NCBI RefSeq assembly: GCF_011075055.1
Contig: NC_058154.1
Location: 10,176,475 to 10,240,474, forward strand
Length of the DNA: 64,000 bases
Source: Mangifera indica
Taxonomy: Eukaryota; Streptophyta; Magnoliopsida; Sapindales; Anacardiaceae
Direction: 5' to 3'
In this document: piece by piece, positions 8,201 through 55,080 of the stretch
Layout: every line of letters starts with the position of its first letter
Position numbering within the stretch: the first letter of the stretch is position 1
Made by a program: the position numbers and the translations under genes
The notes under the pieces: model-generated
Database searches by the model: none
The model's input: the letters and a program-made list of their open reading frames with translations, nothing else
What the model was told of the DNA's origin: nothing

Positions 8201-8446
8201 TAAGTCCAAGCCTTTCTTTTAATTTTCAATTATTGTAATTAATAATTTAAAAATTAAATCAAGATCATGTATTAAAATTGACGGTTCAATGTCAGTTTCG
8301 AATTGAAACCGTTGGTTCTGAACTGGGGCCATGAACCGAAAACGTCGATTCTGAACCGTGGATGAACCATCCTATTACGGTTTCGGTTTAGGGTCCTTAT
8401 TTTTTCAAACCGTGAACCGTCGGTTCATGAACCGTGGCCAGGTCTA
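5283..8446 (+). mobile_element. hAT superfamily DNA transposon, complete ends, decayed transposase
   Basis: The element is 3164 bp and is flanked by a perfect 8-bp duplication (ATCCCCCT at 5275-5282 and 8447-8454). Its ends are imperfect terminal inverted repeats: TAGATTTAGCCACGGGCC on the left, and TAGACCTGGCCACGGTTC when the right end is read inward (13 of 18 match). Both subterminal regions are loaded with GAACCGT/ACGGTTC words, a common hAT trait. The interior encodes a broken transposase in the same orientation, described separately. A second, partial copy of the right end starts at 54730. Confidence 0.9.
5993..8091 (+). pseudogene. hAT transposase pseudogene (BED finger and hAT dimerisation region)
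   Basis: Starting from ATG 5993, the reading frame carries a BED-type zinc finger (CNYC, then HLESKH). It then carries the transposase core (DITCHWIDD, HIRCACHVLNLCVQDGL, DIPTRWNSTYELL) and the C-terminal dimerisation block (APVSTVAVEQAFSQGG, then RRSSLAPESIETQVCV). In-frame stops occur at 6068, 6272, 6335 and 6584. A frame change occurs before 6667, and further stops lie at 7174 and 7747. The protein resembles plant RICESLEEPER-like hAT proteins. It cannot make a full transposase as it stands, so the element would need help from elsewhere to move. Confidence 0.9.
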
Positions 8447-8454
8447 ATCCCCCT
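8447..8454. repeat. Right target-site duplication of hAT element
   Basis: ATCCCCCT, identical to 5275-5282. Confidence 0.85.
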
Positions 8455-8596
8455 CCTTGGGAAAGAATAACAATGGTAGTGTATTTTTCAAAATGTGATT
8501 GCTTAAGTTTTGCTTTGTCAAGTTGCGAAATAGGCCTCTTTGTTTGCCTCGTGTATATATGCGCATTGTTGAACACCACATGCCACATTTTCGAAA

Positions 8597-9286
8597 GGTC
8601 AAAGGACTATTTCCCACCCAAAGTATGCTATTATCTTAAAGTTTCCTCCATTAACTTTGAAAATCTCATTTACCTACTCATGAATGGTTAAAATTAACGA
8701 AGTCGTAACCCTTTAAAATTTTATTTCTTTCTCTCCCCCTCAACCCTTAAAACTAACCATTTTTCCTTAAGCCAAGTTTTATTCCCTAGGGTTTAGCTTT
8801 CAATCTCCGATGCCAAATCCCAGAAGAAGACGTCTAGGAAGACGAGGCCATCGTTTTCGTCTGGGAAGATGAAGAGCTTCATCTCCCGACAAAGCTTTTC
8901 AACTTTCCAGACCAGATTTTGATCTACCAGCATTTCAGAGGAGAAAAGAGAAACCGTTAGAGCATGATGATGCCTCTGGAAAGCTTCGTCATTTGCGATG
9001 GCATCGAATTTGGCACCGGGGATTGAAAGCTAAACCTTAAGGGGGGGGGGGGGGAGAATATTATTTTTTAAAACTTGGCCTAGGGGGAAATGGTTAGTTT
9101 TTAGGGGTTGGAGGGAAAACCTAGATTAAATTTTAATTTATTTTTAATATTATAGATAAAATGAAGATTTTGCTTTTTTAAACCGTTAATTTTAATAGCT
9201 CATGGGTGGGTAAATGAGATTTTCATAATTAACGGGTGAAAAGTTGAGATTACAACATACTTTGGGTGGGAAATAGTCCTTTGGCC
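8597..9286. mobile_element. Mutator-like non-autonomous element with long inverted repeats
   Basis: The left end GGTCAAAGGACTATTTCCCA is mirrored at the right end near 9267-9286. The inverted similarity runs well over 100 bp inward and resumes around GGTTTAGCTTTCAATC. Flanking 9-bp sequences TTTTCGAAA (8588-8596) and TTTTAGAAA (9287-9295) differ at one base, which fits a Mutator-type 9-bp target duplication. The GC-richer centre (about 8820-9010) has no coding frame I recognise. A run of 14 or more G lies near 9040. The second copy is at 55231-55916. Confidence 0.75.
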
Positions 9287-9475
9287 TTTTAGAAAATATT
9301 TTACACGTTATGGTTAGAATATTACGAGTATGAGTTATCACCGGATATTGTAAATACATAAGAATTATCTTGTCCCTAAAGCCAGTCTAGACTCATTAGT
9401 ACATAGGGATGCTACACCCTTAAGACATAGATGGGGTTTCAAAATGCCTAACATACTTGCGGTGAGGAGTGTTTC
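9287..9475. other. Short spacer between two mobile elements
   Basis: No gene is seen. It could be leftover internal sequence of the LTR element that follows, but there is no clear polypurine tract to support that. Confidence 0.3.
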
Positions 9476-11073
9476 TGTTAGTGTATGTCCTAGAAATTAT
9501 TTGCGTTGTTAGTTGTAGGTACTTTATTTGAATAATTTATTAATAAAAAATAATTATTTTTTTTATATACATAAACTGTTTTCTTTATTTTGCAATAATA
9601 TGAAGTATATGTATGAATTGTCTGAATGACTCATTTAATATAAATTGAATTATTGAATTATTCCCTATAGATATGATATAACTAAGATAATTATATCACA
9701 TAGTAGACATATTAAATATCTCCGTTGAATGTCATGGATGATATTAGTGCGGATGATCATGATGGTCATGTCATTAGGGTGTTAGTATGGATTAACAGTT
9801 AGAGAATCATTTTTCGAATATGACTAATAACGATAAATCACATGCTCATTAAATCATAGTCAATGACTTATCGTAAGATCGCAGTAGTGTACAAAGTAAT
9901 CTTTTGACCTAAGACATTATGATCAGATCTGATACGAATATATATATGTAGAGAGAGAGAGAGAGAGAGAGAGATTAACCACATTTCGTAAGACAAACCA
10001 TACTGGTCATGTGTTATTTGTATGTAGAGAAAAATGATGGTCAAGATGAAATCCATTAACTAGGAAAGTATTAGGTTCTAAATATTCGTTGATTCGATTC
10101 GGATCTGAGTTTTGAAGTGAACATTGATAAATATTAGAAATCAAATCTTTAGCCGAAGTATAATATAAGTCATATAAATGATGTTCATTATGACACATTC
10201 TAAATATTTAAATCGATAATTTGTAAAAAGTTAAAATTAGGATTTTGACAATCCATGAGTCTGAAATCGATCTAGATTGAATAACAGAATGAATATTATC
10301 TACATGGAACATACGATTGGAGATTTTAGGTTCGATGAAGTATTTATTTATCATGGTTTAAATGTTATGACACACTGTTAGATGTTTACCATAGTCATTG
10401 AGTTTTTAGATACACTTTTGAATTGTCTAAAAAGGGACTCACGACTATACTATGAAACCCACCCTAAAGGATCATACCGATAAATCAAGCTTACGAGAGG
10501 AAAAATTAATTATCCAAGGTTGGTTAGCACATTTCGAAGGATAATAAGAATAATATAAAATATTATATGTGTGTAAAGATAACATCTTACAAGTTAATGT
10601 GTTAGTGAGATGAAATTAATATGGTTAAAATATACATATATATGTGTGTGTGTATGTGTGTGTGTGACAAATCTTAACATTTTGGTACGTCAAAAATAAA
10701 ATTTTAGAAAACTATAACTTTCAACCATTATAAAAGAATGAAGTTAATTTATTATAAAAAAGGAGTTATCCATTTTAAACTAAAATTTTCCTACTAAAAT
10801 TGTAAAACTCTCTCCTCTCTCTTTATCTCATAACAATGGATAATCTTTTGACTTGGTGATGAACTTTCTTTGGAACTCTTGTAAGTGAGAGACTCATTTT
10901 ATTATCTTATATCCATATAAGAGACAAAAGAATAGATAAAATTCATACCATTTCTTCCTTTTTGTAAATACATATTTTGAGTCTTTCTCTCTTGACACAT
11001 TTATTTTACATCTATTTTTTTCACCCAATCTTTTAATATCATACCTCGAATATCAATCATTAATCTCCTAACA
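9476..11073. mobile_element. Probable solo LTR (Copia-like)
   Basis: This 1598-bp block starts with TGTTAGTGTATGTCCTAGAA and ends with CTCCTAACA, so the ends form the inverted pair TGTTAG/CTAACA. The opening words resemble plant Copia LTRs. There is no internal gag-pol and no second LTR. The 5-bp flanks (GTTTC and TGGGT) do not match, so a target duplication is not shown. It contains a GA microsatellite at about 9950-9974 and a GT-rich run near 10640. The second copy is at 56106-57697. Confidence 0.5.
9950..9974. repeat. (GA)n microsatellite
   Basis: A pure GA run preceded by a short TATATATG stretch. In the second copy (about 56580-56604) the run is interrupted by an extra A. Confidence 0.8.
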
Positions 11074-11606
11074 TGGGTTACACTTTTTGCATAAAGGCGA
11101 ATGATATCAACCTGGTGTCAATTAAGACTTGAACATCAAACTCCAATTATCTTGACCACTTAGGTGAAGCATTAAATATGAACGTAACGAACCATTTGCG
11201 CCAGACACTGTATGACGAGACTTTCAAGTAGTCTACATGTCAGCAATTTCATTGCATTCGATAGACTCTTTGATAAGGGGCTTGAATGGGGAACTTAGTG
11301 GAAATACATTCCAGAAATTCTGAATTATTTTGAACATCGCCTCTTGTACAAGCAAATCCATTTAGATAGATTAACAACAGTGGAAATTCTGCTTCTAAAC
11401 GTTTAACCCCAAAAGAATAATATAAGCATTTCAGCCATTTGAAATAGAGATTGATAATATGATCCTTATATACAGAGGTAACAAGAACATTAAACAATTC
11501 TCCATCTATAAAGCAATAACCTCAAAAAGATACTTACATAGTGCAGGTTAGTGCCTTTCCAGAAAGGGTCAAAACTTCGAGAAAAAATCTCGGAAAACTA
11601 ACAAAA
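11074..11606. other. 3' flank of the AAA-ATPase gene
   Basis: This lies downstream of the stop codon at 11607-11609 on the minus strand. An 82-codon open frame (11249-11497, minus) has no recognisable domain and is probably 3' UTR or spacer. Confidence 0.4.
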
Positions 11607-14600
11607 TCAATCCCCCGGCTGCCTCATCGTTACTATCGACTTCATAAGTGAACAAAGGCACAATTTCTCAAATGTGCAGTGAAAAGAAACATCAGGGTTA
11701 GAATCTGAAGGAACCAGGACACCTTCTCTGAATACAAATTTTGGATCAAACCTGTGTTGGGTATTTGCTTCAGTTATACTTTCACCTCCAGAGTGACAAC
11801 TGCATTCCATTGCTGCAACTAAATTATTTCCTGAACTCTCACAATGACATCTATTCAGTGCTGGATATTCCGAAAAATTTTCAGGATTTCCTTGCCTCAG
11901 GTTGTCATAGAGAGCATTATCACTACTGTCGGTAACTTTTCTAACTAATGAAAGAAGATCCACAGATAATGATGCAACAACATCATGAACATCCTCTACA
12001 GTCCATTTGCTCCCATTCGATCCCAATGTATGAATAAGGATTTTCTGCATCAAATCATGTAGTGCGTGTAGGCATTCAAAGCAAACATGATATGAACACA
12101 TGATCCCAGAGTGCACAGCGAGACTGGGTGTTTCACTGGAACATAAGTCGACGCTGATGGTATGTTCACTAGTACCAGGCTTACCATCATCAGATGTGGT
12201 TTTGATCTCTGTCTCAGACAAGCCACTAACGTGATCACTAGGTTTCTGGGAATAAGATAAATTGGTAACACCCAACTCACCAGAACAGTTGGGACCATTC
12301 TCTGAAAGGATAACGGGTTCTTTGAAAGCAAATCCATTGGAATGTCTCAAAGACTCAGAATCCATATCAATAACTGCATGATTCAAAGTTCCTTCTGACT
12401 CACATGGTCCAAGTTTACTTCCATTCTGTTCATTTAACATTTTATCAACTGATTGATCAACAACAGAATCATGAAGATTTGTATTCAAGGAAGTATCAGG
12501 AAGAACAATATGCTCTGCAGAACCCTGTTCCAAAATCCCAGTGCTGCCAGCAGGATCAGGATGTGTAGAATCATTATGTCCATTGTTCAAGCTAAGAGAA
12601 TCAATGTGTTCAACCTCAAACCCCAGAGACCTAACTTCAGTGACTTCTGGTTCATGTGAGCTTTTATTAGAAACATTTAGCTTACATTCGTCACTTTGAA
12701 TAGAATTATCCACACGGGCGTGACTTTTATCTGGACAACCCCCAATTTCAAGCCTAGGGTTTGCCACTTTTATCTGAGCATCCGATTCTAAACTGAAAAA
12801 TTTTAAATGCTTATTGTTAGAGACATGAATTAGCAAACAAAAATGGAATCACAAACATATAATGATAATAGCAAATAATACCTCTGCAAGGAATATGCCC
12901 AGCTATTAACCACATCTTCCAGATAAGCCACTTGTGATAAAAGACGAACATATCGATACCTATCTTTCCCAGCTTGAACTTTTGCATTAATCTCTCCAAC
13001 TATGAGTTCAAGAACCCTCCGCACATCTGAGCAAACTTCTGTAAGTGATGCATATACTCCTCTATATGCCATTAAACCAACAGCTATGAGGCCCCTTACC
13101 AAACCAGAATTATCTTTCCTATTGATATTGCTGGAGCCAGAAGCAACAGTGACTGTTTCCACTGAATCATTAGGACGAATAATACAGGAATTGAATGGCC
13201 ATCCCTTCCAAGGTCCATTTATGTCTGCACAAGGACCGTCTTTTAACTTTGATGTGAACCAACAAAGCTCAGCAAAATGAGGATACCGCAGAATTTGATA
13301 GCCAAAAGTAGATATAGCTACCAGCAAGCTTGACCTTCCCTTCAAAATTTTATTGTTGGGTGGTGGCACTTTCACAGAAGAATTGTCAGGAAATTCTGTT
13401 CTATCCTTGTGTTCATTGGCTAAACCATGATCTGTACTGTGAAGTTCTGTATCTGTACAGACTTCTGTGAAACCATGAGTTTTGTGCTCTTTGCAATAAT
13501 TTATATGGGTATGAGTTCTTTGATGAACCAACTGAACAACCAGTTGAATTATATCCCTTGATAACTCTGTTGCAGATAGATTGATAACAGTATCAGATTT
13601 GAAATTCTCACCAAGCTCTACAGAAAACCCGCGTACTGAGTGCTCCAAGGGAATTGGAAGATTATGATTTGATGAATGACTCCCAAAAAACTGCCTCACT
13701 CTTGGTGGGAGTGAAGTACATGGAATTTCTGAAGTAGCCTGTTGATACAAAAAGGAATTCTAATTTGAGCAACCAGAGTTAAGAACATAAGACACTGCAA
13801 TAGGGAAAAGTTTGAAAAATAATCAACATGTTAATCATAAGATCATAGCTAAAAGGAGACTTAGTACTGCCAATATAGTGCAACTTATGTCTTGGTTATG
13901 AGATTATAGTCAAATAAGGTAGCATCATTGTCCAAACAGTTCACTTTTCTTTTTTCCCTTTTTGCTTTACTAAGAAATAGTCAAATCAAGCCACAGGTTA
14001 ACACTTTCTAATCAGTCAGATAATAGACAGATGAACACTTCATGCACATGCTCCCAATACATTTTATTTCTCAATTTCTAAGCAGTATTGCAAAAGAGCT
14101 AAATAACCAAAATAATAGTGGTCATTTAACCTACCAAACAATCCTTTCTTTTCATGCAAACCCAGAAATATTTTCATAATTCAATATTTCCATTGTAAAG
14201 AGAGTTATCTTATATATTATTGTGAATAGAACTATATGAAACAGATAATTGGATTAAAAAAAACATATGAAAGTTGATGCATTATACCAAAAATTATGGT
14301 CATACAGATTACGTAGCGTCCAAATGATTGCTTTTTTAACATAATTTGATGCATCAAGAACTAAATTTTAGTCGTAATATTTACATTTGCACCAGCAATT
14401 GTCAAAAATATTGGTGGAAAGAACCCAATAGGCTTAATCATTCCCCAAATATACATGTATAATAACAAGGAAAATATCATAAAGGATAGACAAGGAATAA
14501 ATTGCACTTGTACCAGAATCATCACAGTCGTAGTCACACTTAAAGATTCCACCTGCTCAACAAATGAGCTCCAGGCATGAGAGGGACCCTGAAAATCCAT

Positions 14601-17600
14601 GCTCTCCGCTAAAGAAGATTCATTGCTCGAAGAAGGTGGACTGTTTGTCAAAGAAGAATCAATCCCATTTACTTGCTGAAGCGTCTCTATAGCCCACAAA
14701 TCAATTCTGGGCATGAATACTAAGCATGACCCCACACTAGAACATTTCACTGCCACAAAAATACATAAAATGAGAATTTTAAACCAATCAAACACGAGCA
14801 CTATATTTACAGCACATTATTTGATTAGTAGTGAAGCTTTAAGCTTAAACACGTGTAATTTACAAAGAACATACTGCTTATGCACACATCGGGATTAATT
14901 AAAATATCGTACTGAAGGGATTAACTACAATATCCATACTCTTTGCTCAAGCCAAGTTGAAATTTCAGAAAGTATACATTGAACAGCAATTAGGATCGAA
15001 AAGGCTAATAGCATTAGGTCATAAACATCAACAAATCAAGCAAGTCTGGAAAGGGCAGCAAAGCAAAAGGTAATCTCTAGCATTCATTCAAATGTAGACC
15101 AAAACATCACCTTTATAGATTTTTTCAATTATTTGTTATAAATTTTGAGAAACATTTGCTACTATTGGCAGTAGTTTTCAAACCTCCCATACATCATATG
15201 AACCATAGTAGCTTGATTCTAGAACCAAGGCCTTGAAGAATAAAGGTGATACCACATATATGTCTGTAATATGAGAACTCTAGCAAAGTATGAGAACCAT
15301 GTACATGCAAACCTCAAGTATTGTGTGTAGCGTGTACTTGCTTTAATGATTGCAAACTGAATAAATGCATTTCTCCGATTATCCTTGTCAGTGCACCCTA
15401 ACCTAGGTTTATCTGTGGCCTAAAAAAAAATCAGCCACCTCTGACGATTACATATCTTTTTTTTCATTTTTTTTATTACTTTAAAAGATTCATAACTACA
15501 CACAACCGTAACTTAACGTAACCTAGTCCCCACCCTCAGGGACACCCAGAGAGTTAACAATATATTACCCAGTATTGAAAAATTCTAGAAAAGATTCTTG
15601 GTATGAGATCAAAAAAACCCTAGAAAGATTTGATGAGGTAATCACAAGACCAGGAAGAAAACTGTAATCGATCCTCAAAAAGTAAATAATCTTGAATACC
15701 ATGTCTCTGAAACACTAAAGCATGATCATCAACAAAACAGCGATAGATAAAACAGAAGTTAAAGAAAGGGAACTATACTTAATAGCCGTGTTAAACCCTG
15801 CACCAAATCATCATGTCCTTCTTGACAAATTGTAGCCAAATCAACCTTCTGAATTTCCACATTTCCAACAAAACAATGAAGAAGACATGCAGCAAGGTGC
15901 CTCTGGCCAGATCTTGGACTTCCAGAGATCAAGATCCGAAATCCAGATTTCTTCTTTGACGCAAAAGATATATTTCTAAAAAAACTTGTGTGCTTACCGC
16001 AACCATGCATTATAGCAGGTTCGTAATTAGCATCGCCATTGCTTGTATCACCAGCACAAGCATCAAAACCAGCAAATGTAACCGCTCCAGTTACAACACC
16101 GGCCTGTGAGAGACTTCTCTCTACATCCTTTGCTACATCTGCTTCTTGAAGAAAATCATCAACAAACGACCACCAATGATCACTTGGAATATTTTTCTTA
16201 TCCAAAGCTGAAACAATTGAACTTTTAACCATTGTTGCAGCTTTAGTAAGAGGAGAAGGCAGCCACAGCCGCTCATCTAGATAAAGTGAAACAAGCAAGG
16301 TGGATAATGGTTGCAACAGACAAGGAATTAGGTGGGTGGAAAGAGGAGAGGATACTAAATCATAAGCAGCAATTCCTGCTTCTCTACGTGAGCATGGTGG
16401 CGGGGAACATGACAAAGCTTCCAACCAATCCCTCTCCTCCACGGCAAAGGAAGGAAGAGGAACACGTTTAGCACCAGAACCTTTATCTGCGGCAGCAGAC
16501 AATATTTCTTGGAGAGGGAAATTCCTTTTCAAAGCAACAATAGCTGCTTGAGTACAAAGAGCCTGCAAATCTGCACCAGCAAAGCCGGTAGTTCTACTGG
16601 CAATCCACTTAAGCAATGATCCAGCGATTGGTTTAGGCCACCTTTGTGTGTGAAGTGCAAGAATAGCAGCACGGTCCTTCATTGATGGCAGCGGAAAATA
16701 AATCTCCCTATCAAATCTACCAGGCCTCCTTAATGCTGGATCAATAGCTTCAGGACGATTTGTTGCACCTATCACTACCACTGAACCTCGAGATTTTAAA
16801 CCATCCATTAAAGCAAGCAATGTGGACACAACCGAACTATGAGTCTGATCCTGCTGCCTTGTTCGCTGAGGTGCCAATCCATCTATTTCATCAAAGAATA
16901 TTATAGAAGGCTGACATTTCTCAGCAACTTGAAACAAAAGTCTTAGCTGACGCTCAGCATCACCAACATATTTTCCTAAGCAATCTGCACCCTTCCGGGC
17001 AAAATATGCTATCCGTTTATCACCACGAGCACATGAGCCAATCAATGCCCGTACCACCAGGGTTTTACCTGTTCCAGGGTAACCATGCAAAAGAATGCCT
17101 CTAGGAGGAGTAAGCCCCAGATTATCAAAGAACTCAGGATATAAAAGAGGCAAAATGACAACTTCCTTCATACAACGAATGACATCTTGAAGCCCAGCAA
17201 CAGATTCCCAACCCTCATATAGTTTTCCACCGTCAGAGTCTGGACCACCAATATAGACAGGTGCAATTCTTAACAAATCTCGATGGAGTCTCTTGCTCTC
17301 ACGCTTTAAGAACTCTTCATCCTCGCCACAGTTCTCCAACCATTTTTCTTCCGCTTCAACATCTTTTCGCCAGGCATCATTTGACAACTTCCTTATTTCC
17401 AACTTCATTTTTCTAGCTTTCAATTTTTTTATCCTGGCTAAATATTTATTACCATGAGGTTGAAAGAGATGCCGATGATCTGTACAGGCTATGAGAAATT
17501 TCCGATGATCAAAGATGCAACCATTAGCTCGTGCACAGGGCTGTCCAATTATAAAATGTCAAAAGCAAGAAAATGAAGCTAAAAAGTCAAAAGAGCAAAT

Positions 17601-24475: not shown

Positions 24476-24902
24476 ATTGACAAAATACACAACTAAAAAT
24501 CTAATCTAACATAGGAAAAGACTTAGTGCAGCCACAAAAACCAAATAATAACAGTAAACCAACATTGCAACAGAAAAAGGAAAAACCTGACTGAAGATAT
24601 GGGGGGTAAAATATAACTTCAATCTTTACCTATTCTTTTCGCCATGTTCTGTTGCCCTGGCTGCATTTGCAGAGCAGAAAAGGAGAAGCTCATCAAAATG
24701 GGAATAGTTTAAGACTTTGACTAAGTAATTTTTGGAGTTTCCAAAAAACTAAAGCATCAAGATCTGACCTGGAAGAGAAGGATCATGACTGTAGAAATCA
24801 AATAAATACAATGACAAATTATCGTTTCTGCATATTTTAATCTGCAAATACAGGTCTATCCCAAAAATAATGGACTAAGCTTAAGCAACTTCCTTTTTGT
24901 TA

Positions 24903-27900
24903 TCAAATTCGATCCTTGTATAAAAACTCAACTTCTTGAGAACCAGGATTCCTCCATGCGGTAATCTGCATAAGTGCACCATCAGCAAGCATACGTTGCA
25001 AAACTCTGGCTATGTTCTTTGTGTCATCAATCCCCAGATGATGACTTCCAAACACGGGCATTTGGCGGTTTTTCATCATTCCCATCATCCCTGAGGCCTG
25101 TCCTCCATAATTGAGCAAGCATATGAAATAATAAGATAATTTTGCCAATATGCTGAAAAAAATTTACAGAACATTTTAATTGTGTTGATGAAAAACCTGA
25201 CTCAACCTCATCATTGATCAGCTCATTAGTGCTTTAAGTTTGGGTTTGGGATAGATTGAAAAAGTAGACCGAGGTCATGTTGAGAAGTTTGGTGTCAATT
25301 CTTTGACATCAAACTTATTTAAATCTTGGATAAATGCTCAAAATTCTCGGCTTGTTTAATACCATATGTAAACTGTACAAAACCAAATTGATCACTAAGC
25401 CCAAACTGAGTTGCACCCAGAGAAAGTAAACTCCCCACCACCCCACACCCCACCCCCAATAAAAAAGAAAAGATATTGTTAAGCCATAAAATTTTAGTCC
25501 ATGGTTGAACATAAAGGAGGAAATGACAGAGTAAATTCACAAAAATCTGAAAGCTCAATACATGTGTGTGCATACCTCACTTTTTTTAGTCTTGTAAAAG
25601 TTATAAAAGGCATCTTTCAGGTTGATCCACTCCATGAAATATGGAGGAAGCTTAATATTTGAGACTTTGCATTGATCAGGGACCTTTGTCTTCAAATCCC
25701 AATTTCCACTAAAAACCAACAGAGGAAAATTAATTTAGTGAGCCGGACATTTCCAACAAGTAGAGGCTATCTCATGGAGCTCCTTGTGGAAGGAAACTCA
25801 CCAAGTCACAAATGCCGCTCGATGAAGACAACCATCTAGTTCTTTCCCCACAAGTGATGTTGAGTCAACCAAGCTTCAAATTGCTCAAGAACTTCATTAA
25901 ATGGGATAGCTGTGTCATGCCAAACGCTGCAGATATATAGTTGTTAAATAAATTTGCCACCAAAGCGGTAAAGATATATTGGGAAAGGGATATTACAATC
26001 CATGCTGATTTTTCAATTTCAAAAGGCTAGAAGCAGTAGAGAGTGTGCAATCTGTTAGGACTGATGTTTTTGTTACCTGCAGGAGCAAAAATTGAGAAGA
26101 CAGGTGGCAAAACAAGGAAAGGAGCACCACCAAACACAAGGCAAGAAATGGGCAGGCAGTTAAGAAAGCGAGAACATCAAAGAAGTGAGAGAGCAGTGAG
26201 GGGAGGCAAGAAGAAAAATCAGAAAAGAATTGAGAGGGAACTGAAAAAGGGAGGCCTTGGCCTCAGGGAGAACTGAAAAATCAGATTATTTTTCCTTGTT
26301 CTTATTCTATTTCCCTCTGTCTATATTTTTATTCATTTGGTTGTTGTTGGTTGAGTGCACTGTGGATTGAATATATACATGTACACACACACACACATTT
26401 ATTTGAATCTAGCCATTCATGGAATTGTTGCAGAATTGTTTGAGTCTGTTGTTGGATTGTTTGTTAATATTAGGAAGTTCTTGAGTAATATGTGCATGTT
26501 GATAACATGATCAAATAAAAATTAGGAAAATTACAATTTTTAGCCTTATTTTAATCCGTGTATACATATATACCACTCATTTCAAAACTTAAACAAATAT
26601 ATCATAACAGTAATCTACTTCCCCAAAATACACCTTTTGAAATGGCCCATGCAGAGATTCTCTCTTTTTCTCTACAACTTTTTTTCTCTTCTTCCTCATC
26701 TTTCAAGTGATAAAGGAATCATGTAGAGAGATTATCTCTCTTTTTCTCTGCAACTTTGGAATTGTACTATAAAAAATAGATTAAATGTTTCAGAATAGAG
26801 TCAATGTTTCAAAAACAAAAAAAGGAAAGAAAAAACTGAAAAGTGAAACGGATTTCAGATTAAAAATTCTTCGAAGTAAGGATATAAAAAAAAAGAGCAA
26901 TTCACCAAAACTTAACATATCCACTTTATACATGAAAGAAATGAGATCATTTAATAGGATTTAACTTAAAAAAATAAATGATTGGTATTTAACTGGAAAA
27001 AAAATAATACTGAAAAATAAAAAACGGTTAAAAGGGGTTGACGGACGCCAACCCTTCAATTGAAAAGGTTGGCCTCGACCAACCTTTTCAAATAAAAAGG
27101 GTTAGCGTGGGTTGGCCACACGCCAACCCAGTTAAAATTAAAGGGTTGGCGTACTTGAAAAAAAAAGGGTTGGCGTTGACTTGTCGTTAACGTCAAGTCA
27201 ACCCCTTTTTTACTATTATAAATAATTTTTTTGACATGAAATATATTATATTATATTTTCATCAGTCTTAGAATTCTCACAAATAACCATAAAATATATT
27301 ATATCAACATAGAGTTCAACATTTTCATAATTCAAAGAGGTTCAATACCATAACATGTTAATAAATTAACAAATATGCACGAAAATAAATTTGGATATGA
27401 AATTCAATGATTATGACCAACTTCTGAACTATCCTTGGTTTGAGATTTGTACGATTTAAAATATGACATCTTAATAATCAAACGCTCTCCATATTTATAG
27501 GGATTCGATCTCCATCAATCATATTGAAAAAATACATTTTCTCTATCTCTAACAATATTAGGAGTAACTTTATCCAAGATAAAGTTATTATAATGCTTGC
27601 GATAGCCTACATGCTCGCACTTCGTTGATTTGGGAAAATAAAGAGAGATATTGATTTTCTTATATTCATTACAATTCTGCGTTCTTCAGCAAGTTATAAT
27701 TCATCCACACATTATCAATAATTCTTGAATTTCTTATCCCGAACAAGATTAGAAATTATTGAAGTCCAATAATCTAATAATGGTCTTAGTAATTCAGATA
27801 TCCTCTCATTTTTAGTTAGTTTTATGCCCTTGTCTTTTAAATCATAATATCTTTCATGCATGACACCAAGGTGAGTGAAAAAGTTATGCACTAGGTTCAT

Positions 27901-29074
27901 CTTATAGTTCAGATAGTACTCCTTAGTCAACATGTTCACCCTACATATGTCAACAAACAGACAATAATAAATTATACATGCATAACAATATAAATATTTA
28001 CTCTAAACAAAATATATATTTATTTAAATATAAACAAATTAAGTCAAAATAAAAAATTTTGGCTTAATGAAAAATAAAGGGGTTGTCGCCAACCCCTTTT
28101 TAATAAAAGTTAAGGGGTTGGCGTCAACCCTTAAATTTTTTTAAAAACCCAACCCCTTTTTTTTCTCTACACAGTTTTTTTTCTAAATAGGGATTGGCGA
28201 CGCCAACCCTTTTATTTTTAAGAAAGGGGTCGCCAACCCCTTCAATTTACATTAAGGGATTGGAACCCCCTCCCAAAGTAATTTTCCCAGGCAAAACCAG
28301 TTTCTTACATTTTTTTCATTTTTAAAATTACAACAATTGGCTAATTAACAATATTGTTAAAATTGTAATATTTTGATTTACTTAATTGAATTCTGATATA
28401 ATTAAATTAAATTAATTTAAGCAGAATTTAAATTGAATTAATTTTGATACGATACAACACATTTATGCTTCTGTTTTATAAAAAACCCACCTGTTGTCCT
28501 GCCGTTATTTCGCCTCTGCAAATCCAACAAGTTTCGTCAGTCGATTGCTCACTGAATTTTTTTTTGTGCAAAGTATAGATTTCTCTCTCTTTTATGGTAT
28601 GTTTAAGATAAATGTGTTATATATATATATATTGAAGTATTTTTTGCATATTCAACATCAAATACTTCATTCTTTGCATATAAAGTGGTAAAAATGTTTA
28701 GAGTCTACATTTTTTACACTCTAAATATTTTTACCGCTTTATAGGATAGGATGTCTAAATTGCCTTATCTTCAACCTTGAGAAACCAAAACTAAGTTTTC
28801 AGTATTACTTACTTTTAATGCACTGTAGAGAGAAAAAATGTATAGATATTTAGTATCAATATTTAAAACAAGATTTATATTTATGTGTTAAATAAGATCA
28901 AGTGAATTTTAAATTGTTGAGTTTAAATTTTTTATATTAAATGTATAAATATTGTAAACTCAATTGATCTTAACAACCGAAATTTTTAAAGCAGCACATG
29001 AAAGGATAATTCAAGAAACCACCCATGAAAAGCATGCACTGAAGTACTTGGTGTTGAATATGCAAAGAATACAT

Positions 29075-29114
<40 letters not shown>

Positions 29115-32100
29115 GAAGAATCAAAACAAAAATGAATTGCAAAATCTTACAGAAAAAAATTTGCAGAAGCATGAGGGTATAATTTTTATTGCAGAATCTT
29201 GCAGAGAATTATTAGTGCAATAGTATTCACGTGATTCATCTTTAGCACACATATATATATATATAGAGTACATCTATCTTAAACATACCATAAAAGAGAG
29301 AGAGATCTATACTTTGCGCGAAAAAAAATTCAGTGAGCAATCGACGGACGAAACTTGTTGGATTTGCAAAAGCGAAATAACAGCAAGATAACAAGTGAGT
29401 TTTTTATAAAACAGAAGCATAATTGTATTGTATCGTATCAAAATTAATTCAATTTAAATTCTACTTAAATTAATTTAATTTAATTCTATCAGAATTCAAT
29501 TAAGTAAATCAAAATATTGTCAAATATTATAATTTTAACAATATTGTTAATTACTCAATTGTTGTAATTGTAAAAATGAAAAAAATGTTAAGAAACTGAT
29601 TTTGGCTGGAAAAATTACTTTGAGAGGAGAATTTCAATCCTTTGCTGTAAGTTGAAAGAGTTGGCGTTTTTTAAAATATTTTTTAAAAAAAGCCAACCCT
29701 TTTTTTTTTAAATTTAGGGGTTGATGCGAACCCTTTAACTTTTATAAAAAGGGGTTGGCGGCAACCCTTTTATTTTTCATTAAGCCAAAATTTTTTATTT
29801 TGACTTAATTTATTTATATTTTGTTTAGAACAAATATTTATATTATTATGCATATATAATTTATTATTATCTATTTATTAGTCATATATAGAATGAACAT
29901 GTTGACTAAGAACTACTATTTGAACTATAAGATGAATCCAGTGCATAACCTTTTCACTCATCTTGGTGTCATGCATGAAAGATATTATGATTTAAAAGAC
30001 AAGGACATAAAATTAACTAAAAATGAGAGGATCTCTGGATTACTAAAGTCATTACTAGATTATTAGACTTCAATAATTTCTAATCTTATCCGAAATAAGA
30101 AATTCAAGAATTATTGGTAATGTGTAGATGAATTACAGCTCGCTGAAGAACGCAAAATTGTAATGAATATAAAAAAATCAACATCTCTTTCTATTTTCCC
30201 AAATCAATGAAGTGCAATACGTGTAGGCTATCGCACGCATTATAATAACTTTATCTTGAATAAAATTACTCCTAATATCGTTAGAGATAGAGAAAATATT
30301 TTTTCTCAATCTGATTGGTGGAGATCGAATCCCTATAAATATGGAGAGCGTTTGATTATCAAGATGTCTTGTTTTAAATCGTACAAATCTCAACCCAAAG
30401 ATAATTCAGAAGTTGGTCATAGTCATTGAATTTCATATCCAATTTATTTTCGTGCGTATTTATTCATTTATTAATATGTTATGATATTGAACCTTTTTGA
30501 ATTATGAAAATGTTAAACTCTATGTTGATATAATATAATATATTTTATGGATATTTGTGAAAATTCTAAAACTGATGAAAATATAATATAATATATTTCA
30601 TGTCCAAAAAATTATTCATAATAGTAAAAAAATGTTGGCTTAGCGTTAACACCACGCCAACCCTTTTTATTTTAAATTAGCGAGTAAGGGTTGGCATTAG
30701 CGAGTAAGGGTTGGCGTCGCCAACCCTTTAATTTTAACTGGTTTGGCGTGTGACCAACCCACGCCAACCCTTTTTATTTTAAAAGGTTGACCAAGCCAAC
30801 CTTTTTAATTGAAGGGTTAGCTTGGCGTTACGTCAACCCTTTTTAACCTTTTTTTTATTTTTCAGTATTGTTTTTTTTCTAGTTAAATACCAATCCTTTA
30901 TTTTTTTTAGTTAAATCCTACTAAATGATCTTTTTCGATCGTCATTTCTTTCAGGTATAAAGTGAATGTGATTGAATTTTGGTGGGTTGCTCTTTTTTTT
31001 TTATATCTTTACCTCGAAAAATTCTCAATCTGAAATTCGTTTCACTTTTCAGTTATTTCCTTCCTTCTTTTGTTTTTAAAACATTGACTCTATTCTGAAG
31101 TATTTATTATATTTTTTACAATACAGTTCCAAAGTTGCAGAGAAGAAGAGAGAGAATTTCTCTGCATGATTCCTTTATCACTTGAAAGATGAGGAAAGAA
31201 GAGAAAAAAAATTACAGAGAAAAAGAGAGAAAATCTCTGCATGGATCATTTCAAGAGGGATATTTTGGGGAAGTAGATTACTGTTGTGGTATATTTGCTT
31301 AAGTTTTAAAATGAGTGGTATATATGTATACACAGATTAAAATAAAGCTAAAAATTTCAATTTTCCTAAAATTTATAGGTAGAAGAGTATACCAACAGAA
31401 AATTCAGAGACAGTGCAGCATTGCCTAGACTCCATTTAGCATTCCAAAATTGAGACAATAGAGGACATACCATGATAACAGGGACAAGAGATACTAAATA
31501 TAGCATTATAAAATTCAATTTATCCAAATCATATCGAGAACAAAGAACTAGATGCATACCGATCAACTCCAAATTTTCCATATTTCCTTCGATGTATTTG
31601 TTTATATGTTGCTCACTCATTTTTGAGGGCCTCACAAACCTGTTGATCAAAACTTATATTTATTTATTCTCCAAGTATGAAATGTCATAAATCATCTAAA
31701 GCCAATAAAAGAATAAAGGGAAAGGTTAACATACAGAAATGGCAAGCCTGTATGATCATGCTCCTTGGACAGAAATATTAAGGAAGATAACTCTAATTAT
31801 TTTTAAGCCCTACTCAAATCAAAGTGATTATCTCAAATAATAAAACACAGGCAACATAAGAAAAAAATAAACATCTAGACGTCCAAACAAGTCAATTTCT
31901 TTCTAAAAACAAAACAATGATTGCTAGATAAGCTTTATGCTAGTCATGATATATTTTTATGTTCTACGATTATAGATAATCCAAACTGGTCTCATCCCTA
32001 GCTGAAAAAAGTTATTATAGATTCTCACCTTAGAAGCACCTGAATATGCATCCTCTCACAATTGAAAATTCCATATAACTCTAAGGCCATTGACAATGAA

Positions 32101-33724
32101 CAATGGAAAGACAGAATGATACAAGTAAAAGATGCCAGAGAAACATGCGTTGACACAATTAACCAACAAGAGAGTGCAGAAGATAACAACATCCCACAAA
32201 AACATGTCAAGAGGAAAAAGAGAAAAACCTGTGGAAGAAATCTACAAAGCCCATGGTTTTTGCATCTATCATCAGGACAGGAAATTCAAGAATTTCAATT
32301 TTCCCCTCCAAATCAAGCACCAAGAAATAATCTAAATCCTGAGAGCACTTGCATTGAGAGGCAGCAGCTTTTACTTTAAGTTCCCTAGAGATATCATGAT
32401 TAAACTTCTCAAGGTGCGTAGTATCATCCATCTAAAATGCAAAGTAACTCCAGTTATAAACCACATTTTACAATTTAGCATCAAATAAGAGGAAAACAAA
32501 GCTGAAAAACTACTATAGAAACAAGAAAAACAGATGATTGTAAGTTACTAAGGCAAGTTACTATCCTTCACTTCTATAACCCATTGTATTAGAACAATAT
32601 GCAAGTCAAGTATCTTGATGCCAGTGATCGTTGAAGGTTGCCAAAACAGTCTGGTTTGATGAAGTTGAAGAGTTGAGCTGAGGTTGAAGTAAAGAAAGAG
32701 AAAGATTTGCTTTAACAATTCAAATTAGAGAGACACAGAGAGATTCATACATTAGGCAACAAAGACTACTTTTCATTTCTTCTTCCCTGCTTTTAAGCCA
32801 CCTAGACACTGCATAACGGTCACTCAACTTTCACAATTCTATTCCAAAAAAACAACACCATATCAACTCATCTTTTACAATTAAAAGAAATTAAAAATGA
32901 CATCATTCAACTTATTACTTATATAATTCAATTGGAACAACACAACTCTGCAGTTCTTTGGATTAAATGACACAGCTGCACTGCTCATCTTCTTCTAAAA
33001 ATATCAATCCTTCTCGCCACCACATAGTTCAGTCTGTATCATATACAAAATGGCTAGTTTGATTAAATTAAAAATTTAATGGGAAAAAAAAACTAATGAA
33101 GAATTTAAATTAAATTTTTTTTTTCAATACCCAAAAATCCCTCATCCTCCCCTACATGGTTGCTTATAGTTCTAAACTGGGGTTACTTCCAGACACTATA
33201 CCCTTCATAGCCAGAAAACTTATGGGAAATATAGCAAAAAAGACGTGAACGAAGGGATTGGAGCCCTGTCTCTCACTATATATGAAATTCACTGTAAAAC
33301 ATTTTTGTAAATTCATGTATCCAAGAGTGTGAATCTAAGTTGAAACAAAAGCAGGAACAAGGTCCCAAATTTCATTGAAACAATTGATCGAACACGTATC
33401 ATGCACAATAAAAATTCCCAAAACAGTACAAAAGCAACCAGCAAGCCACCAAATTTAGCCTTATCTTCGTTATTATTAAATGTGTGAATGTGAAGATGTT
33501 ACCATGGTACACTTCCCCTGAGTGAAGTACAAACACAGCGGTTTCCATCGGGCGCCTGCTTTCTTCTTCTCAGTTACAAGATGAAGAGACGATGATGTTG
33601 GGACCGAAGAGCACATGTAATTGGCGCAACTGAGAGTACGGACACCGGCTATAGGCAGAGGGAGAAAGCTAGCCAAACGAAGAGGAGAAAGTCCGGTAGA
33701 GTGGAGAACCTTAAGAAACGACAT
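24903..33724 (-). CDS. ERL1: ERI-1-like 3'-5' exonuclease (At3g15140/ERL1 type), frameshifted in this sequence
   Basis: The exons are 33503-33724, 32229-32431, 31560-31639, 25802-25926, 25576-25708 and 24903-25097, all GT-AG. Exon 1 gives a Ser/Leu-rich, transit-like N-terminus and the Cys-rich RWKPLCLYFTQGKC segment. Exon 2 carries the DEDDh exonuclease signature VLDLEG (Asp and Glu metal ligands). Exon 5 has GNWD and exon 6 HHLGIDDTKN (catalytic His and Asp). The expected product is about 319 residues. Exons 3 and 4 are each one base short in A/G-rich runs (GGAAATATGG and GGAAAGAAC). The second break gives an in-frame TAG, so the sequence as shown cannot encode the full enzyme. All splice sites and catalytic residues survive, so assembly error is as likely as true decay. 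Arabidopsis ERL1 is a plastid enzyme of 5S rRNA maturation. Intron 3 (25927-31559) is swollen by a giant foldback element. Confidence 0.75.
26051..26507. mobile_element. Possible short solo LTR
   Basis: The block begins TGTTAGGACTGATG and ends GTTGATAACA, giving TGTTA/TAACA ends 457 bp apart inside intron 3 of the exonuclease gene. It contains a purine-rich half, a CA microsatellite near 26382-26398 and a T/G-rich half. The flanks CAATC and TGATC do not match as a 5-bp duplication. The 77-codon open frame in it is low-complexity (Lys/Arg/Gly) and not convincing. Confidence 0.35.
27362..27939 (-). pseudogene. Unrecognised decayed ORF, left arm of foldback element
   Basis: On the minus strand it opens MNMLTKEYYLNYKMNLVHNF and continues through LGVMHERYYDLKDKGIKL, then ISNLVRDKKFKNY and a stop at 27715. 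In-phase or near-phase similarity to the right-arm copy continues past the stop down to about 27362 (WRSNPYKYGERLIIKMS, then a His-rich end). Both arms keep this frame better than the surrounding sequence. I do not recognise the family. It may be a transposon protein or a captured host fragment. Confidence 0.45.
29078..29112. repeat. (AT)n microsatellite
   Basis: An uninterrupted TA run near the loop of the foldback element. A shorter TA run sits at the mirror position (about 28618-28632). Confidence 0.85.
29894..30429 (+). pseudogene. Unrecognised decayed ORF, right arm of foldback element
   Basis: This is the mirror copy of 27362-27939. It opens MNMLTKNYYLNYKMNPVHNL and has one in-frame stop after LLKSLLDY. 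It then reads TSIISNLIRNKKFKNYW, stops, and after further breaks continues VGYRTHYNNFILNKITPNIV and SDWWRSNPYKYGERLIIKM to a stop near 30427. Most differences from the left copy are substitutions that keep similar residues. No domain recognised. Confidence 0.45.
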
Positions 33725-34245
33725 TGTCGTTTCTAGATTTGAAGTAAACGGCTTCGTCTTTTGGGGTTGAGGGTTTTTTCATAAGCAGGGAATTTCAATT
33801 GTATTTCTTTCTTTTTCTCTCCCCTTTTTTATTTCCCTCTCTTTCAATCAAGATTTAGGTATATTGGATTTGCAGCTGTGTGTTTGAAAAATGTTGATAT
33901 ATATCAATTAAAATGATATTATTTCAATTAATATATATTAAAATGATATTATTTTAATCATTTTTATTCAACTGTAGTACCGAATCAAACTCAAAACTCA
34001 AATTTGAGTTTGAACTCAAACTCGATTCTTCTCAAACAAACTGAACTCCAACACTTTTGATACAGACTCACAAACTCAATCTTGAGCTACACTTAAGTCA
34101 AAACAAACTTAAACTCGATTCAATCTGACTCAAATCCAATCCTACTAGGAATTCAAAAATTATAAAATACCAAAGATTAATACATAATACAATTTCTGAA
34201 TCCAAAACAGAATGTAAGATTACACTTGCACATTAACCACTTTCC
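33725..34245. promoter_or_regulatory. Region between HPY2 3' end and the exonuclease start
   Basis: The part next to 33724 should hold the exonuclease promoter and leader: a pyrimidine-rich stretch near 33800-33850. About 33880-34140 is a repeat made of AAACTCAAACTCGAT-like words, related to 39330-39660. The remainder is the HPY2 3' flank. Confidence 0.35.
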
Positions 34246-37200
34246 TTACGCATTTTCTTCATCATCAAGCCCTGTGCAATCTTCAATCACATTAGGCCTG
34301 GCATTTCTATTGTTCATTGACCGCATTTCTTCTATTTCAACCTGTAACAGAGGGTCACACACAACTTTTGCTGCCTTCAGAATCTTGGGGCACCCTGACA
34401 GGAGAAGAAATTTTCAGTGATAAAAGCTTGCATCGGGTATTAAAAGCTCAATTAAAAACAAACAATATACCTGCTACCGGGCATCGGCCATTTTTATTCT
34501 TGGATTTAATATAGGCCAAGATTGCATCCCTTTCATATATATGCTTGCACTCCACACTGCATCATGATAAGCCACAGACATTGGAAACAAGTCAGACTCT
34601 GTTGTTAAACTAATATGCTGATGAACTCAAACGCCTGGCCAACAATGGAACAAGTTTATCTAGGCTAAATTCTACATGAATAAAACTATGCATATAAACT
34701 GAGATGACAACTTTGTGATTAGATGATATGATTATTAACTTTTTTTTTTACTTCAAAATTACCTAATAAGATGTTATCACATCAATTGGTATAGATAAGT
34801 TTATACAATTTTTTTGTATATATAAAATTACTTATCCTACAATACAGCCATGGCAAAACTAAGAAACCAACCATCGTTCACCTCAAGCTAGGAACACCTT
34901 AAAACGTAGAATAGGCAATTACTTTCATATGCACCGAAACAATGACTCCCATAAACATTAAAACCAGGAACCAATGATTCATCAGTTCTTGTGTCAAAGA
35001 TAACTTTCATTTGCTATTTTCCAAACAATTGCAGACTCGTATAAACCGAAGAAAAACTTGAAAAATAACTAATAATAGGTCACAATGACATAAGACGGTT
35101 TTATTTGACCATGAATGAGATTCTTTTTCACAAATTTAGTTTTTTTCATATATATTTACCAAGTAGGCCCTTGCCAGACCAAATACAAGTTTGATAGGTA
35201 GCTTCCAACACTCCAGTTTAGAGAAGCTTGCTCATTTATAGTTGATATGAACTTCAGGATAATCACATTTCAAAAGCTAACTATTGAAATAAAAGAGCCC
35301 AAAATCATCTAAACCTCATACTAGTTGTTCCATATTTTCTATATAGGATCTAACTCTTATACCTTGAACTTGAGATCCTAACATACCACTACACTCCGCA
35401 GCCCTAACGCCCATAGGGTTAACTATGCACTAGCTCCCTACTAACCTCGAGCAAACACTGCAATACCAACGTCACCATCAGCGCAATACGATTGCAACTG
35501 GGAGATTTCGTGTTGACTTTGATATCAAATTATATAAAACTTAGAAGAACCACACCTCAAAAATTAGCTATTGAAATAGGAGAATCCAAGACCATATAAA
35601 TTTCACACTAGTTGTCATACTTTCCAATGTGAGATTCAGGTCTCATACCTTGCACTTAAGATCGTAACAATAGTTCACCCCGTTTTGTGCTTAAACAATA
35701 TCTTAAAATTACCTTTCCCTTAATGGTAGTGCCCACCAACATAAATTCAGTCATTTTACTGATATAAGAGGAACAGTGAAGCCCCCACCATACAGACAAC
35801 GAACATGACATTAGATCAGCAATCAAGAACAAGTACAGCCATTAGCCAGTCAAAAAAGGCTGAGACATGATTGCTTAAAACCCCCTAGTGTTATCTTGGA
35901 AATGTTAAGGGAAAAGCATGTTCCTGTTAAGCAAATTTTTGCATATAGTATTTCCAGTTATGGTAAGAAAAAAAAAAAAAAAAGCTTACGAGTTTCTAAG
36001 AAGAGAAAAATAACATACAAAAGATCCAACTGACTAAAGAAACACCAAGATATGTTTGAAGTGAGCCTACAGTACCTTCGGACTGGGTCTGCTAACTCAG
36101 TAAGGGGTTTTCCACTCAAAGGACAAGTGAAATTCAAAAGGTTGCACTGGGTACTGGTCATTATAACGTCCTCCTGCTCTTCCCCTGGCATTGGTTCTCC
36201 TGCATGATGAACATTCTGCAGGGAAATAGCAAAACACCACCAAATAGATAATTAAAAGATAAAGTAGCCACAACAACTGATAGAATTTCAAAACAATAAA
36301 TATGGAGATAAAAAACTTGGTGATTGTAACTCTCTTCAAATATGCAGACATTTATATTGATTGCCACAGGGTGTTAAAGTAAGTCAGGCAAGGAATAAAG
36401 GTTTAAATTAGCTATGCTTCACATTAATTTTGAAGTATTAATTTGTCGCAATATATACTACTCAATTCCTACCTTGAAGGTATTATATTACAGTGTTTGA
36501 TTATCAGCCCATTTTTAAGTATTAAACATTGCTGTATAACTTCTTCAGTTTTTACCGCTCAAATATAATTTAAAGTATCTGTTGGTTGCTTGAGAGGTGT
36601 CTAAATTGTACTTTCTCTCCCTCAAACAGACACAAATGCTCCATCCAAAATGCTTTCTTTCCAGAAAATGAAAGGTGTCTCTTTTACAATTGACTGACAT
36701 TCAAGAAAAAATGTTCCACATTTTGTACTAAATGTCTAGAAAAATACCCAGACAGCTTCTCTGAATTGACGCATCAGTGATTCCTTTTGTGGAAAAGATG
36801 ATGAAGCAGTCTTGGACTTCACAAGCTCACCCTCAAGCAACTTCTTAAAATCTGTTAACTACAATTCAAAATTGTACCAACAAAGTTTATAAAAAGAAGT
36901 GTCTGTACAATTAAACCAACACAGTCATTGAACAAAGAAAGCCTATGCATAATAAGATAATCCAGTCACCTCTGTCCCAGGCTCATATAAATTTCCAATT
37001 GATTCAATGGATGATGAATAATGTGTACAGTCTCCATAAGCTTCTGACAGCTGCATAGCAGCATCCTCTAGTTTCTTCACCTGAAATTATTTACAATTAC
37101 CAATTCCAGTAATATACAGAAAGATGCACAGAGTTCCTATCAAATTTTCAACTGTTGTTTAGCAACTGAAACAAAGACACCAGTTTTCAGATTCAAGTAA

Positions 37201-54729: not shown

Positions 54730-55080
54730 AAGGAAGTACTGTCAACTATTAGATATGCAAAGGTAAAAGAACTACGTAGACTTTAGATTTCTTCTAAACC
54801 CCAAGAAGATACGTAGAAAGCTTAATTGAAAAATTAATTCCAATCCTATTCTTTTAATTTTCAATTATTGTAATTAATAATTAAAAAAAATTAAATCAAG
54901 ATCATGTATTAAAATTGACGGTTCAATGTCATTTCGAATTGAAACCGTTGGTTCTGAACTGGGGCCATGAACCGAAAACGTCGATTCTGAACCGTGGATG
55001 AACCATCCTATTACGGTTTCGTTTAGGGTCCTTATTTTTTCAAACCGTGAACCGTCGGTCATGAACCGTGGCCAGGTCTA
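54730..55080 (+). mobile_element. Right end of the hAT element, second copy (partial)
   Basis: It corresponds to about 8098-8446, including the GAACCGT subterminal words and the terminal GGCCAGGTCTA. ATCCCCCT follows at 55081-55088. The left part is lost in the gap. Several single-base deletions separate it from the first copy. Confidence 0.85.

What the first reader, a model, noticed from the sequence alone, without database searches (positions are those of the whole stretch)
26522..31369. 4.85-kb foldback element with 2.2-kb arms carrying a mirrored unknown ORF
Nearly the whole element is an inverted repeat. Each arm has a reading frame starting MNMLTK that keeps its residues (YYDLKDK, LTKNERIS, KKFKNY, WRSNPYKYGERLIIKM) despite stops and frame changes. 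I do not recognise this protein, and no known transposase motif was seen. It may be the defining protein of an undescribed long-TIR element family, or a captured host fragment amplified by it.
Basis: partly seen in the sequence, partly recalled or inferred. Interest (0 to 1): 0.75.

Follow-up and report, generated by a model that had tools for sequence, protein, structure and literature searches.

The report
Doubled-up jumping gene carrying retrotransposon piece
This is an old, broken plant jumping gene (probably in mango) made of two mirror-image copies joined tail to tail, and its 'unknown protein' is a piece that the jumping-gene family picked up from a different kind of mobile element, a copia retrotransposon in which a related small protein is often still readable.

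Summary
The foldback is real: element 26525-31366, flanked by an imperfect 9-bp target duplication (8/9). It is an inverted dimer of a ~2.5-kb non-autonomous element scattered in the same plant genome (very likely Mangifera indica). Ten elements tested for a 9-bp duplication: 4 at 9/9, 4 at 8/9, 2 at 7/9, the signature of Mutator-like elements (MULEs); no transposase partner was found. In the dimer both copies lack roughly the outermost 40-60 bp of the right end and meet around a 13-bp loop. The same insertion also lies on contig C46, so one insertion is seen, not an amplified foldback family. The mirrored ORF is not a transposase. It lies in a ~750-790-bp segment that, outside these elements, sits in the 5' leader of Ty1/copia retrotransposons: 86 of 150 scored ORF matches have a copia gag just downstream on the same strand, none in two control configurations. 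Copia-linked ORFs span 47-99% identity to a mango gene model; 30 matches with MULE ends nearby are all at 72-83%, suggesting capture by the MULE. In MULE copies the ORF drifts nearly neutrally; in copia it is open in 27 of 86. It resembles the C-terminal half of copia Gag weakly (PF14223 in 6 of 11 sequences). That leader ORF is the interesting by-product.

The parts
26516..26524 (.). left copy of the 9-bp target site duplication, TAAAAATTA
   Evidence: 8/9 match to the right copy; 90 mixed pairings of flanks from different elements gave 0 at 9/9 and 6 at 8/9
31367..31375 (.). right copy of the target site duplication, TAAAATTTA
   Evidence: at the same site on C46 (L031), read in the window's direction, the left copy is TAAAAATTA and the right one TAAAAATTT
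26525..31366 (.). whole foldback element, an inverted dimer of a ~2.5-kb non-autonomous Mutator-like element
26525..28669 (+). left arm (monomer start to about monomer position 2,061 of 2,445 in L037)
28680..28704 (+). stub of the left arm's inner end; the sequence between it and 28669 has been lost from this arm
   Evidence: pairs with the right arm around the loop; the longer arm is kept in L031
28705..28717 (.). 13-bp loop at the palindrome centre, shared in position with L031
28718..31366 (-). right arm, an inverted copy of the monomer without roughly its outermost 40-60 bp at the right end
26525..26640 (+). left-type terminal inverted repeat, outer end (begins GGAAAATTACAATTTTTAGC)
31251..31366 (-). 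left-type terminal inverted repeat at the other end; both ends of the dimer are left ends
27250..27996 (-). segment captured from a copia retrotransposon leader, left arm
   Evidence: L046, L048, L050, L028, L029 carry it upstream of gag; 88-89% identical
29835..30587 (+). captured copia segment, right arm (ends approximate, read off the arm pairing)
27404..27939 (-). broken leader ORF (178 codons), left arm: 4 stops and a one-base deletion
29893..30429 (+). broken leader ORF (178 codons), right arm: 3 stops
27047..27174 (.). cluster of GTTGGC/GCCAAC motifs beside the captured segment (others at 28088-28237, 29660-29759, 30634-30800)
   Evidence: 20 sites inside the element; GGGTTGGC/GCCAACCC 16 inside, 0 in the rest of the window

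Best explanation
The element is a non-autonomous Mutator-like transposon (MULE) that became a foldback by inverted dimerisation. Steps: (1) an ancestral MULE captured ~750-790 bp of the 5' leader of a Ty1/copia retrotransposon, including a 178-codon ORF (shared segment shown; direction inferred from diversity). (2) The monomer (~2.5 kb) spread by transposition with 9-bp target duplications (shown). (3) One monomer broke inside its right terminal repeat and was copied back on itself around a 13-bp loop, by snap-back repair synthesis or sister-chromatid fusion, giving two tail-to-tail monomers with a left-type end outside on each side (anatomy shown, process inferred). (4) A transposase supplied in trans treated the two left ends as a pair and inserted the dimer as one unit (8/9 duplication shown, transposase inferred). 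(5) The dimer then decayed: one arm lost ~0.4-0.5 kb near the centre, and both arms took stop codons (shown), with at most weak selection on the ORF. It probably has no function of its own now; as a near-perfect hairpin it may have been a source of silencing small RNA (inference).
For: Arms. Of 20 fetched relatives, 16 hold one main copy in a single orientation with matches to the end region, 1 is the other dimer (L031), 3 hold only the captured segment. Duplications: 4 of 10 elements at 9/9, 4 at 8/9, 2 at 7/9, against 0 and 6 of 90 mixed pairs at 9/9 and 8/9 (the ten are those with both ends in view, and window and L031 are one insertion). Dimer junction: both L031 arms reach monomer positions 2,467 and 2,479 of 2,528 and abut; window and L031 share the loop. 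Copia identity: gag (PF14223 E 1.5e-17, DUF4219 2e-7), reverse transcriptase RVT_2 E 6.3e-35, a zinc-knuckle match just under its cut-off, and the primer-binding motif in 4 of 5 copies with enough sequence. ORF belongs to copia: 86 of 150 scored ORF matches have gag downstream within 3 kb, 82 of them at 298-605 bp, 0 upstream and 0 on the other strand. MULE ends lie near 30 of the 64 without gag, and near 0 of 38 checked (of 45) with gag at 70% or more.
Against: No autonomous partner was found: of 150 scored MULE-transposase matches, 2 lie within 10 kb of one of 59 family loci, 0.45 expected; one of the two was looked at in part (2.9 kb) and shows no convincing family end, the other not at all. 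So 'Mutator-like' rests on duplication length and end anatomy. The window's own duplication is 8/9, in AT-rich DNA (6 of 90 mixed pairs also reach 8/9). The window arms' dN/dS is 0.32, in the lowest 2% of 400 neutral simulations, L031's 0.41 in the lowest 8%; shared changes among the four arms are 8 synonymous of 15. The tree does not root the direction of capture. The gag and ORF lists are capped at 150 scored, so a missing gag is not proof of a non-copia context (L028 is a copia copy counted without gag).
Confidence: 0.85

Rival explanations
1. Undescribed long-TIR transposon family whose defining protein is the mirrored ORF.
For: ORF present in both arms and in many copies; no known transposase motif.
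Against: The amplified form is a monomer with short ends; the ORF occurs without these ends in copia leaders over a wider identity range; weak match to copia Gag, none to transposases; near-neutral drift in element copies.
Confidence: 0.04
2. In-situ local inverted duplication: a monomer inserted, then was duplicated in reverse at the same spot, without transposition of the dimer.
For: Only one insertion site carries the dimer; among the matches listed the only opposite-orientation arm pairs are the window, its tandem copy and C46.
Against: Both outer ends stop exactly at a left-type terminus beside nearly matching 9-bp flanks; an in-situ inversion would not be expected to place the second left end precisely at the old right flank.
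Confidence: 0.08
3. Capture ran the other way: copia retrotransposons picked the ORF segment up from the MULE.
For: In the unrooted tree of 30 rows the 7 copia rows form one clade (100/95) among MULE rows.
Against: Copia-linked ORF matches span 47-99% identity to the gene model while the 30 with MULE ends nearby are all at 72-83%; majority differences between the two groups are 8 synonymous to 1 non-synonymous, selection expected of a coding source; weak Gag resemblance.
Confidence: 0.06

Closest known systems
Pack-MULEs and MULEs with extra terminal repeats (Ferguson and Jiang 2012, PMC3310237; abstract and sections 3.1 and 4 read)
   Same: Non-autonomous MULEs with target duplications, some with captured gene pieces, and abnormal numbers of terminal repeats; some are multicopy.
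   Different: Theirs have tandem or solo extra terminal repeats; here two whole monomers face tail to tail and the captured piece is from a retrotransposon leader.
Tm1 Mutator/Foldback family of root-knot nematodes (PMC3169594; abstract and passages read)
   Same: Foldback-like inverted repeats with 8-10-bp, mostly 9-bp, target duplications; some members encode a Mutator-type transposase.
   Different: Tm1 inverted repeats are largely built of 13-15-bp tandem repeats; here the arms are nearly complete monomers and no transposase member was found.
FARE foldback elements of Arabidopsis (title seen in the reference list of PMC3169594, otherwise recalled)
   Same: Plant foldback elements with long inverted arms (recalled).
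   Different: Not compared by sequence here.
Ty1/copia retrotransposons with additional ORFs (review PMC12786077, passages read)
   Same: Source of the captured segment: gag, copia-type reverse transcriptase, primer-binding motif; the review says additional ORFs can be found in most LTR-retrotransposon lineages.
   Different: The extra ~178-codon ORF lies upstream of gag; I found no description of it in the searches named below.
Ty1 p22, a truncated Gag that restrains its own element (PMC4599808; start of abstract in the listing only)
   Different: p22 is identical to part of Gag and comes from an alternative transcript; the leader ORF is a separate, diverged sequence and no function was tested.
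Pack-TIR formation by fork stalling and template switching (PMC8277862; passages read)
   Same: A replicative template-switch route by which DNA transposons gain foreign sequence and then transpose.
   Different: Described there for animals; used here only as a parallel for capture and for snap-back copying.

Membership tests
Mutator-like element (MULE) | ~9-bp target site duplication | tested here: met
   4 of 10 elements 9/9, 4 of 10 8/9 (window and L031, one insertion, among these), 2 of 10 7/9; mixed pairs 0 of 90 at 9/9; in all ten, 9 bp scored better than 8 or 10
Mutator-like element (MULE) | terminal inverted repeats, often long | tested here: met
   about 80 bp alike at the two ends of monomers, beginning GGGAAATT or close to it
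Mutator-like element (MULE) | mobilised by a MURA-type transposase of a related autonomous element | tested here: inconclusive
   150 scored MULE-domain matches, 2 within 10 kb of a family locus (0.45 expected), none tied to these ends
Pack-MULE | internal sequence captured from elsewhere in the genome | tested here: met
   the donor is a retrotransposon, whereas Pack-MULEs in the usual sense carry gene fragments
Foldback transposon | most of the element is inverted repeat | tested here: met
Foldback transposon | foldback form amplified as such | tested here: inconclusive
   the dimers seen (window, its tandem copy, C46) are one insertion site; only 40 of 1,305 candidates were scored, so others may exist
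Ty1/copia (donor of the ORF segment) | gag, copia-type reverse transcriptase, primer-binding site | tested here: met
   PF14223 1.5e-17 and RVT_2 6.3e-35 over cut-off; zf-CCHC 19 bits against a cut-off of 20.8; primer-binding motif in 4 of 5 copies with enough sequence (not in L029)
Copia Gag (PF14223) as the ancestry of the leader ORF | match over the curated score | tested here: not met
   best 22.3 bits against a cut-off of 27; E 9.9e-5 to 3e-3 in 6 of 11 sequences scanned, 0.14 in one, none in two without the N-terminal half and none in the window's own two stretches; profile comparison with the element's own gag gave nothing

The most novel reading that the evidence does not exclude
The mirrored ORF is the fossil of an undescribed accessory protein that a lineage of copia retrotransposons in mango carries in its 5' leader, upstream of gag. 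It is still open in a good part of the copies, seems to change faster than gag, and may be a truncated-Gag-like regulator of the element's own copy number, in the manner of Ty1 p22, possibly reached by splicing out an intron that spans the primer-binding site.
Probability: 0.33. Interest if true: 0.65.

Novelty: new member of a known kind. Interest (0 to 1): 0.4.

Why it matters
It shows, in one palindrome, how a MULE can turn into a foldback: loss of one terminal repeat tip, tail-to-tail dimerisation, then insertion of the dimer by its two like ends. It also uncovers a leader ORF in a copia lineage that can now be tested for a role in controlling the retrotransposon. The foldback itself is otherwise ordinary genomic debris.

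Tried and rejected
Transposase reading of the ORF: Pfam scans of ORF stretches and a PDB sequence search (one match at E 0.13) gave no transposase. Structure prediction of the gene-model alignment: mean pLDDT 32, discarded, no fold search made. Profile comparison of the ORF with the downstream gag: nothing, both alignments shallow. Autonomous partner: MULE-domain search, one neighbouring stretch: nothing tied to these ends. 'Foldback amplified as a unit': dropped once the flanks of C46 proved to be the same site. Selection on the ORF in MULE copies: pairwise dN/dS 0.44 on average (171 pairs), window arms 0.32, against a simulated neutral median of 0.64 (5-95% 0.37-1.31); private changes match neutrality (24.5% synonymous, 25.3% expected), shared ones run a little higher (30.6%), the four dimer arms alone 31.6% private and 8 of 15 shared. 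I take this as no good evidence of function in the MULE, with a weak hint left standing. Splicing: donor-like GGGTATGT in 4 of 4 and acceptor-like TATATAG|GGTG in 7 of 7 copia copies examined, but in all four the upstream stretch has a stop in the frame needed, so only a possibility. Papers: nine answered searches; none of the titles and abstract starts listed there describes this mango element or a copia leader ORF of this kind.
Full report
WHAT IS THERE. Inverted repeats cover nearly all of 26515-31376, with arms 87-88% identical by BLAST and 88.7% over 2,075 aligned positions. The element proper is 26525-31366, between 9-mers TAAAAATTA and TAAAATTTA. The apparent spacer is part of the right arm whose partner is missing: the centre is a 13-bp loop at 28705-28717, with a 25-bp stub of the left arm before it and a loss of about 0.4-0.5 kb of left-arm sequence before that stub.

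WHERE ELSE. The window lies in a 391-Mb, 241-contig genome. It is very likely Mangifera indica: the best database relative of the ORF is 'uncharacterized protein LOC123208364 [Mangifera indica]', whose ORF part is found in this genome at 99%, and a mango assembly of 396 Mb with 20 chromosomes of 12.8-29.8 Mb is published (PMC8545804, passages read). One arm gives 129 matching pieces, with 40 of 1,305 candidates scored. Of 20 relatives fetched and mapped, 16 hold one main copy in a single orientation with matches to the end region, 1 is another dimer (L031 on C46) and 3 hold only the middle ~750 bp. Monomers with both ends in view are 2.4-2.7 kb, with about 80 bp alike at the two ends.

TRANSPOSITION SIGNATURE. 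Ten elements with both ends in view were tested for a duplication next to matching ends: 4 show 9/9, 4 show 8/9 (window and L031, one insertion, among them), 2 show 7/9; of 90 mixed pairings of flanks from different elements, 0 reach 9/9 and 6 reach 8/9. In all ten, 9 bp scored better than 8 or 10 when duplication and ends were judged together. The other fetched loci were not tested. A 9-bp duplication with such ends is the mark of Mutator-like elements (established knowledge). A transposase with these ends was not found: 150 MULE-domain matches were scored, 2 lie within 10 kb of one of 59 family loci (0.45 expected), and 2.9 kb at one of these shows no convincing family end.

THE DIMER. L031 consists of two monomers that abut at its midpoint, reaching monomer positions 2,467 and 2,479 of 2,528, so they lack the outer 61 and 49 bp of the right end. 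The window's right arm reaches 2,489. Both share the same loop. Both outer ends are therefore left-type ends. C46 and the window carry the same insertion: flanks are 98.6% and 98.9% identical over 1,985 and 2,895 bases, the element 90.7% over 4,508. Among sites where the four arms split two by two, 32 group the corresponding arms of the two loci, 18 group by locus and 8 cross, so the dimer is probably older than the split of the loci. One founding dimer and one insertion are what the data show; other dimers could lie among unscored candidates. I infer a break in the right end, snap-back copying or sister fusion, then transposition by the two left ends.

THE ORF. The middle segment with the ORF occurs without MULE ends in view in L046, L048, L050, L028, L029, L053 and L054 (L053 and L054 are 1-kb pieces). 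Of five with enough sequence, 4 have the primer-binding motif upstream (not L029) and 5 have the gag start downstream; gag matches PF14223 (E 1.5e-17) and DUF4219 (2e-7), a zinc knuckle is just under its cut-off, and a copia-type reverse transcriptase (RVT_2, E 6.3e-35) is present in L028. So the segment is the leader of a Ty1/copia element. Genome-wide, 150 of 916 candidates for the ORF and 150 of 1,439 for gag were scored: 86 of the 150 ORF matches have a gag match within 3 kb downstream on the same strand, 82 of them at 298-605 bp; none has one upstream and none on the other strand. By identity to the gene model: >=85%, 22 of 23 with gag; 70-84%, 23 of 74; 56-69%, 12 of 19; <56%, 29 of 34. 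MULE-end matches lie within 3.5 kb of 30 of the 64 without gag, all 30 at 72-83% identity, and of 0 of 38 checked (of 45) with gag at 70% or more. The remaining 34 without gag are unassigned; one of them, L028, is a copia copy whose gag was not among the scored. The wide spread in copia and the narrow band with MULE ends point to capture by the MULE, perhaps once; the MULE loci were found with the window's own sequence, so other captures could have been missed. The tree of 30 rows is compatible but unrooted.

SELECTION. In 19 monomers and 4 dimer arms, private changes are 37 synonymous, 105 missense, 9 stop (24.5% synonymous; 25.3% expected from the mutation spectrum), shared ones 48, 95, 14 (30.6%). 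In 6 copia copies private ones are 32, 70, 7 (29.4%), shared 14, 21, 3 (36.8%); in the four dimer arms alone 31.6% and 8 of 15. Pairwise dN/dS is 0.44 in MULE and in copia copies, 0.37 between them, 0.32 and 0.41 for the two arm pairs, against 0.56-0.73 in the other frames and a simulated neutral median of 0.64. Majority differences between copia and MULE groups are 8 synonymous to 1 not (at a stricter threshold only 2 to 0 remain). Taken together: purifying selection somewhere on the copia lineage, near-neutral drift in the MULE, with a weak pairwise hint that I cannot fully explain. ORF matches without stops: 27 of 86 with gag, 7 of 64 without. Two fetched copia copies, 98.4% alike (L053, L054), have the ORF without stops or indels.

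WHAT THE ORF PROTEIN MAY BE. Eleven sequences were scanned against Pfam: 6 match PF14223, the copia Gag family, at E 9.9e-5 to 3e-3, on its C-terminal half and below the curated cut-off; one more is at 0.14; two that lack the N-terminal half and the window's own two stretches do not match. They are close relatives of each other, so this is nearly one observation. A profile comparison with the element's own gag found nothing and the structure model is useless. I rate Gag ancestry as likely but unproven. Several copia-linked ORFs at 47-60% identity to the gene model sit beside gags that are 63-86% identical to the L048 gag, so the leader ORF seems to change faster than gag; but the two reference points differ, for the L048 element against the gene model's own element the two values are alike (79% and 77%), and leader swapping between elements would look the same.

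VERDICT. The foldback is an ordinary, decayed non-autonomous MULE in an unusual shape. The leader ORF of the copia lineage is the lead worth following.

Noticed in passing
window 8098-17376 and 54730-64000: Near-identical direct copies (99.6%) 46.6 kb apart, the second starting right after a 500-N gap (54230-54729); the foldback's left arm recurs 46.6 kb on at C18:10249619 at 100%. Possibly an uncollapsed haplotype or assembly duplication.
   Followed up: partly
window 24517-34273 against L031 (C46:37000-46999): At the same insertion site the foldback has diverged 9.3% while its flanks differ by 1.1-1.4%; private changes in the arms are dominated by C>T/G>A (163 of 282). Heavy methylation of the palindrome could explain part of it.
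   Followed up: partly
C17:7944110, C2:13940619, C2:5878750, C1:19955694, C16:5526218, C8:15048803, C6:9549980 (G000): Divergent (52-54%) copia leader ORFs without stops in the matched stretch, each with a gag just downstream: perhaps a maintained, fast-changing accessory ORF.
   Followed up: partly
L033:3864-8442: Neighbouring ~4.6-kb element with the same kind of ends and an 8/9 duplication, directly beside a monomer; content not identified.
   Followed up: no
window 49489-50277: Another palindrome, ~0.8 kb, 84% identical to its own reverse complement.
   Followed up: no
element, 20 sites between 27047 and 30800; also in the monomers: Clusters of GTTGGC/GCCAAC motifs on both sides of the captured segment, possible transposase-binding or hairpin sites.
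   Followed up: partly
window 6667-7749: Two adjoining ORFs that look to me, by eye only, like a broken hAT-type transposase.
   Followed up: no
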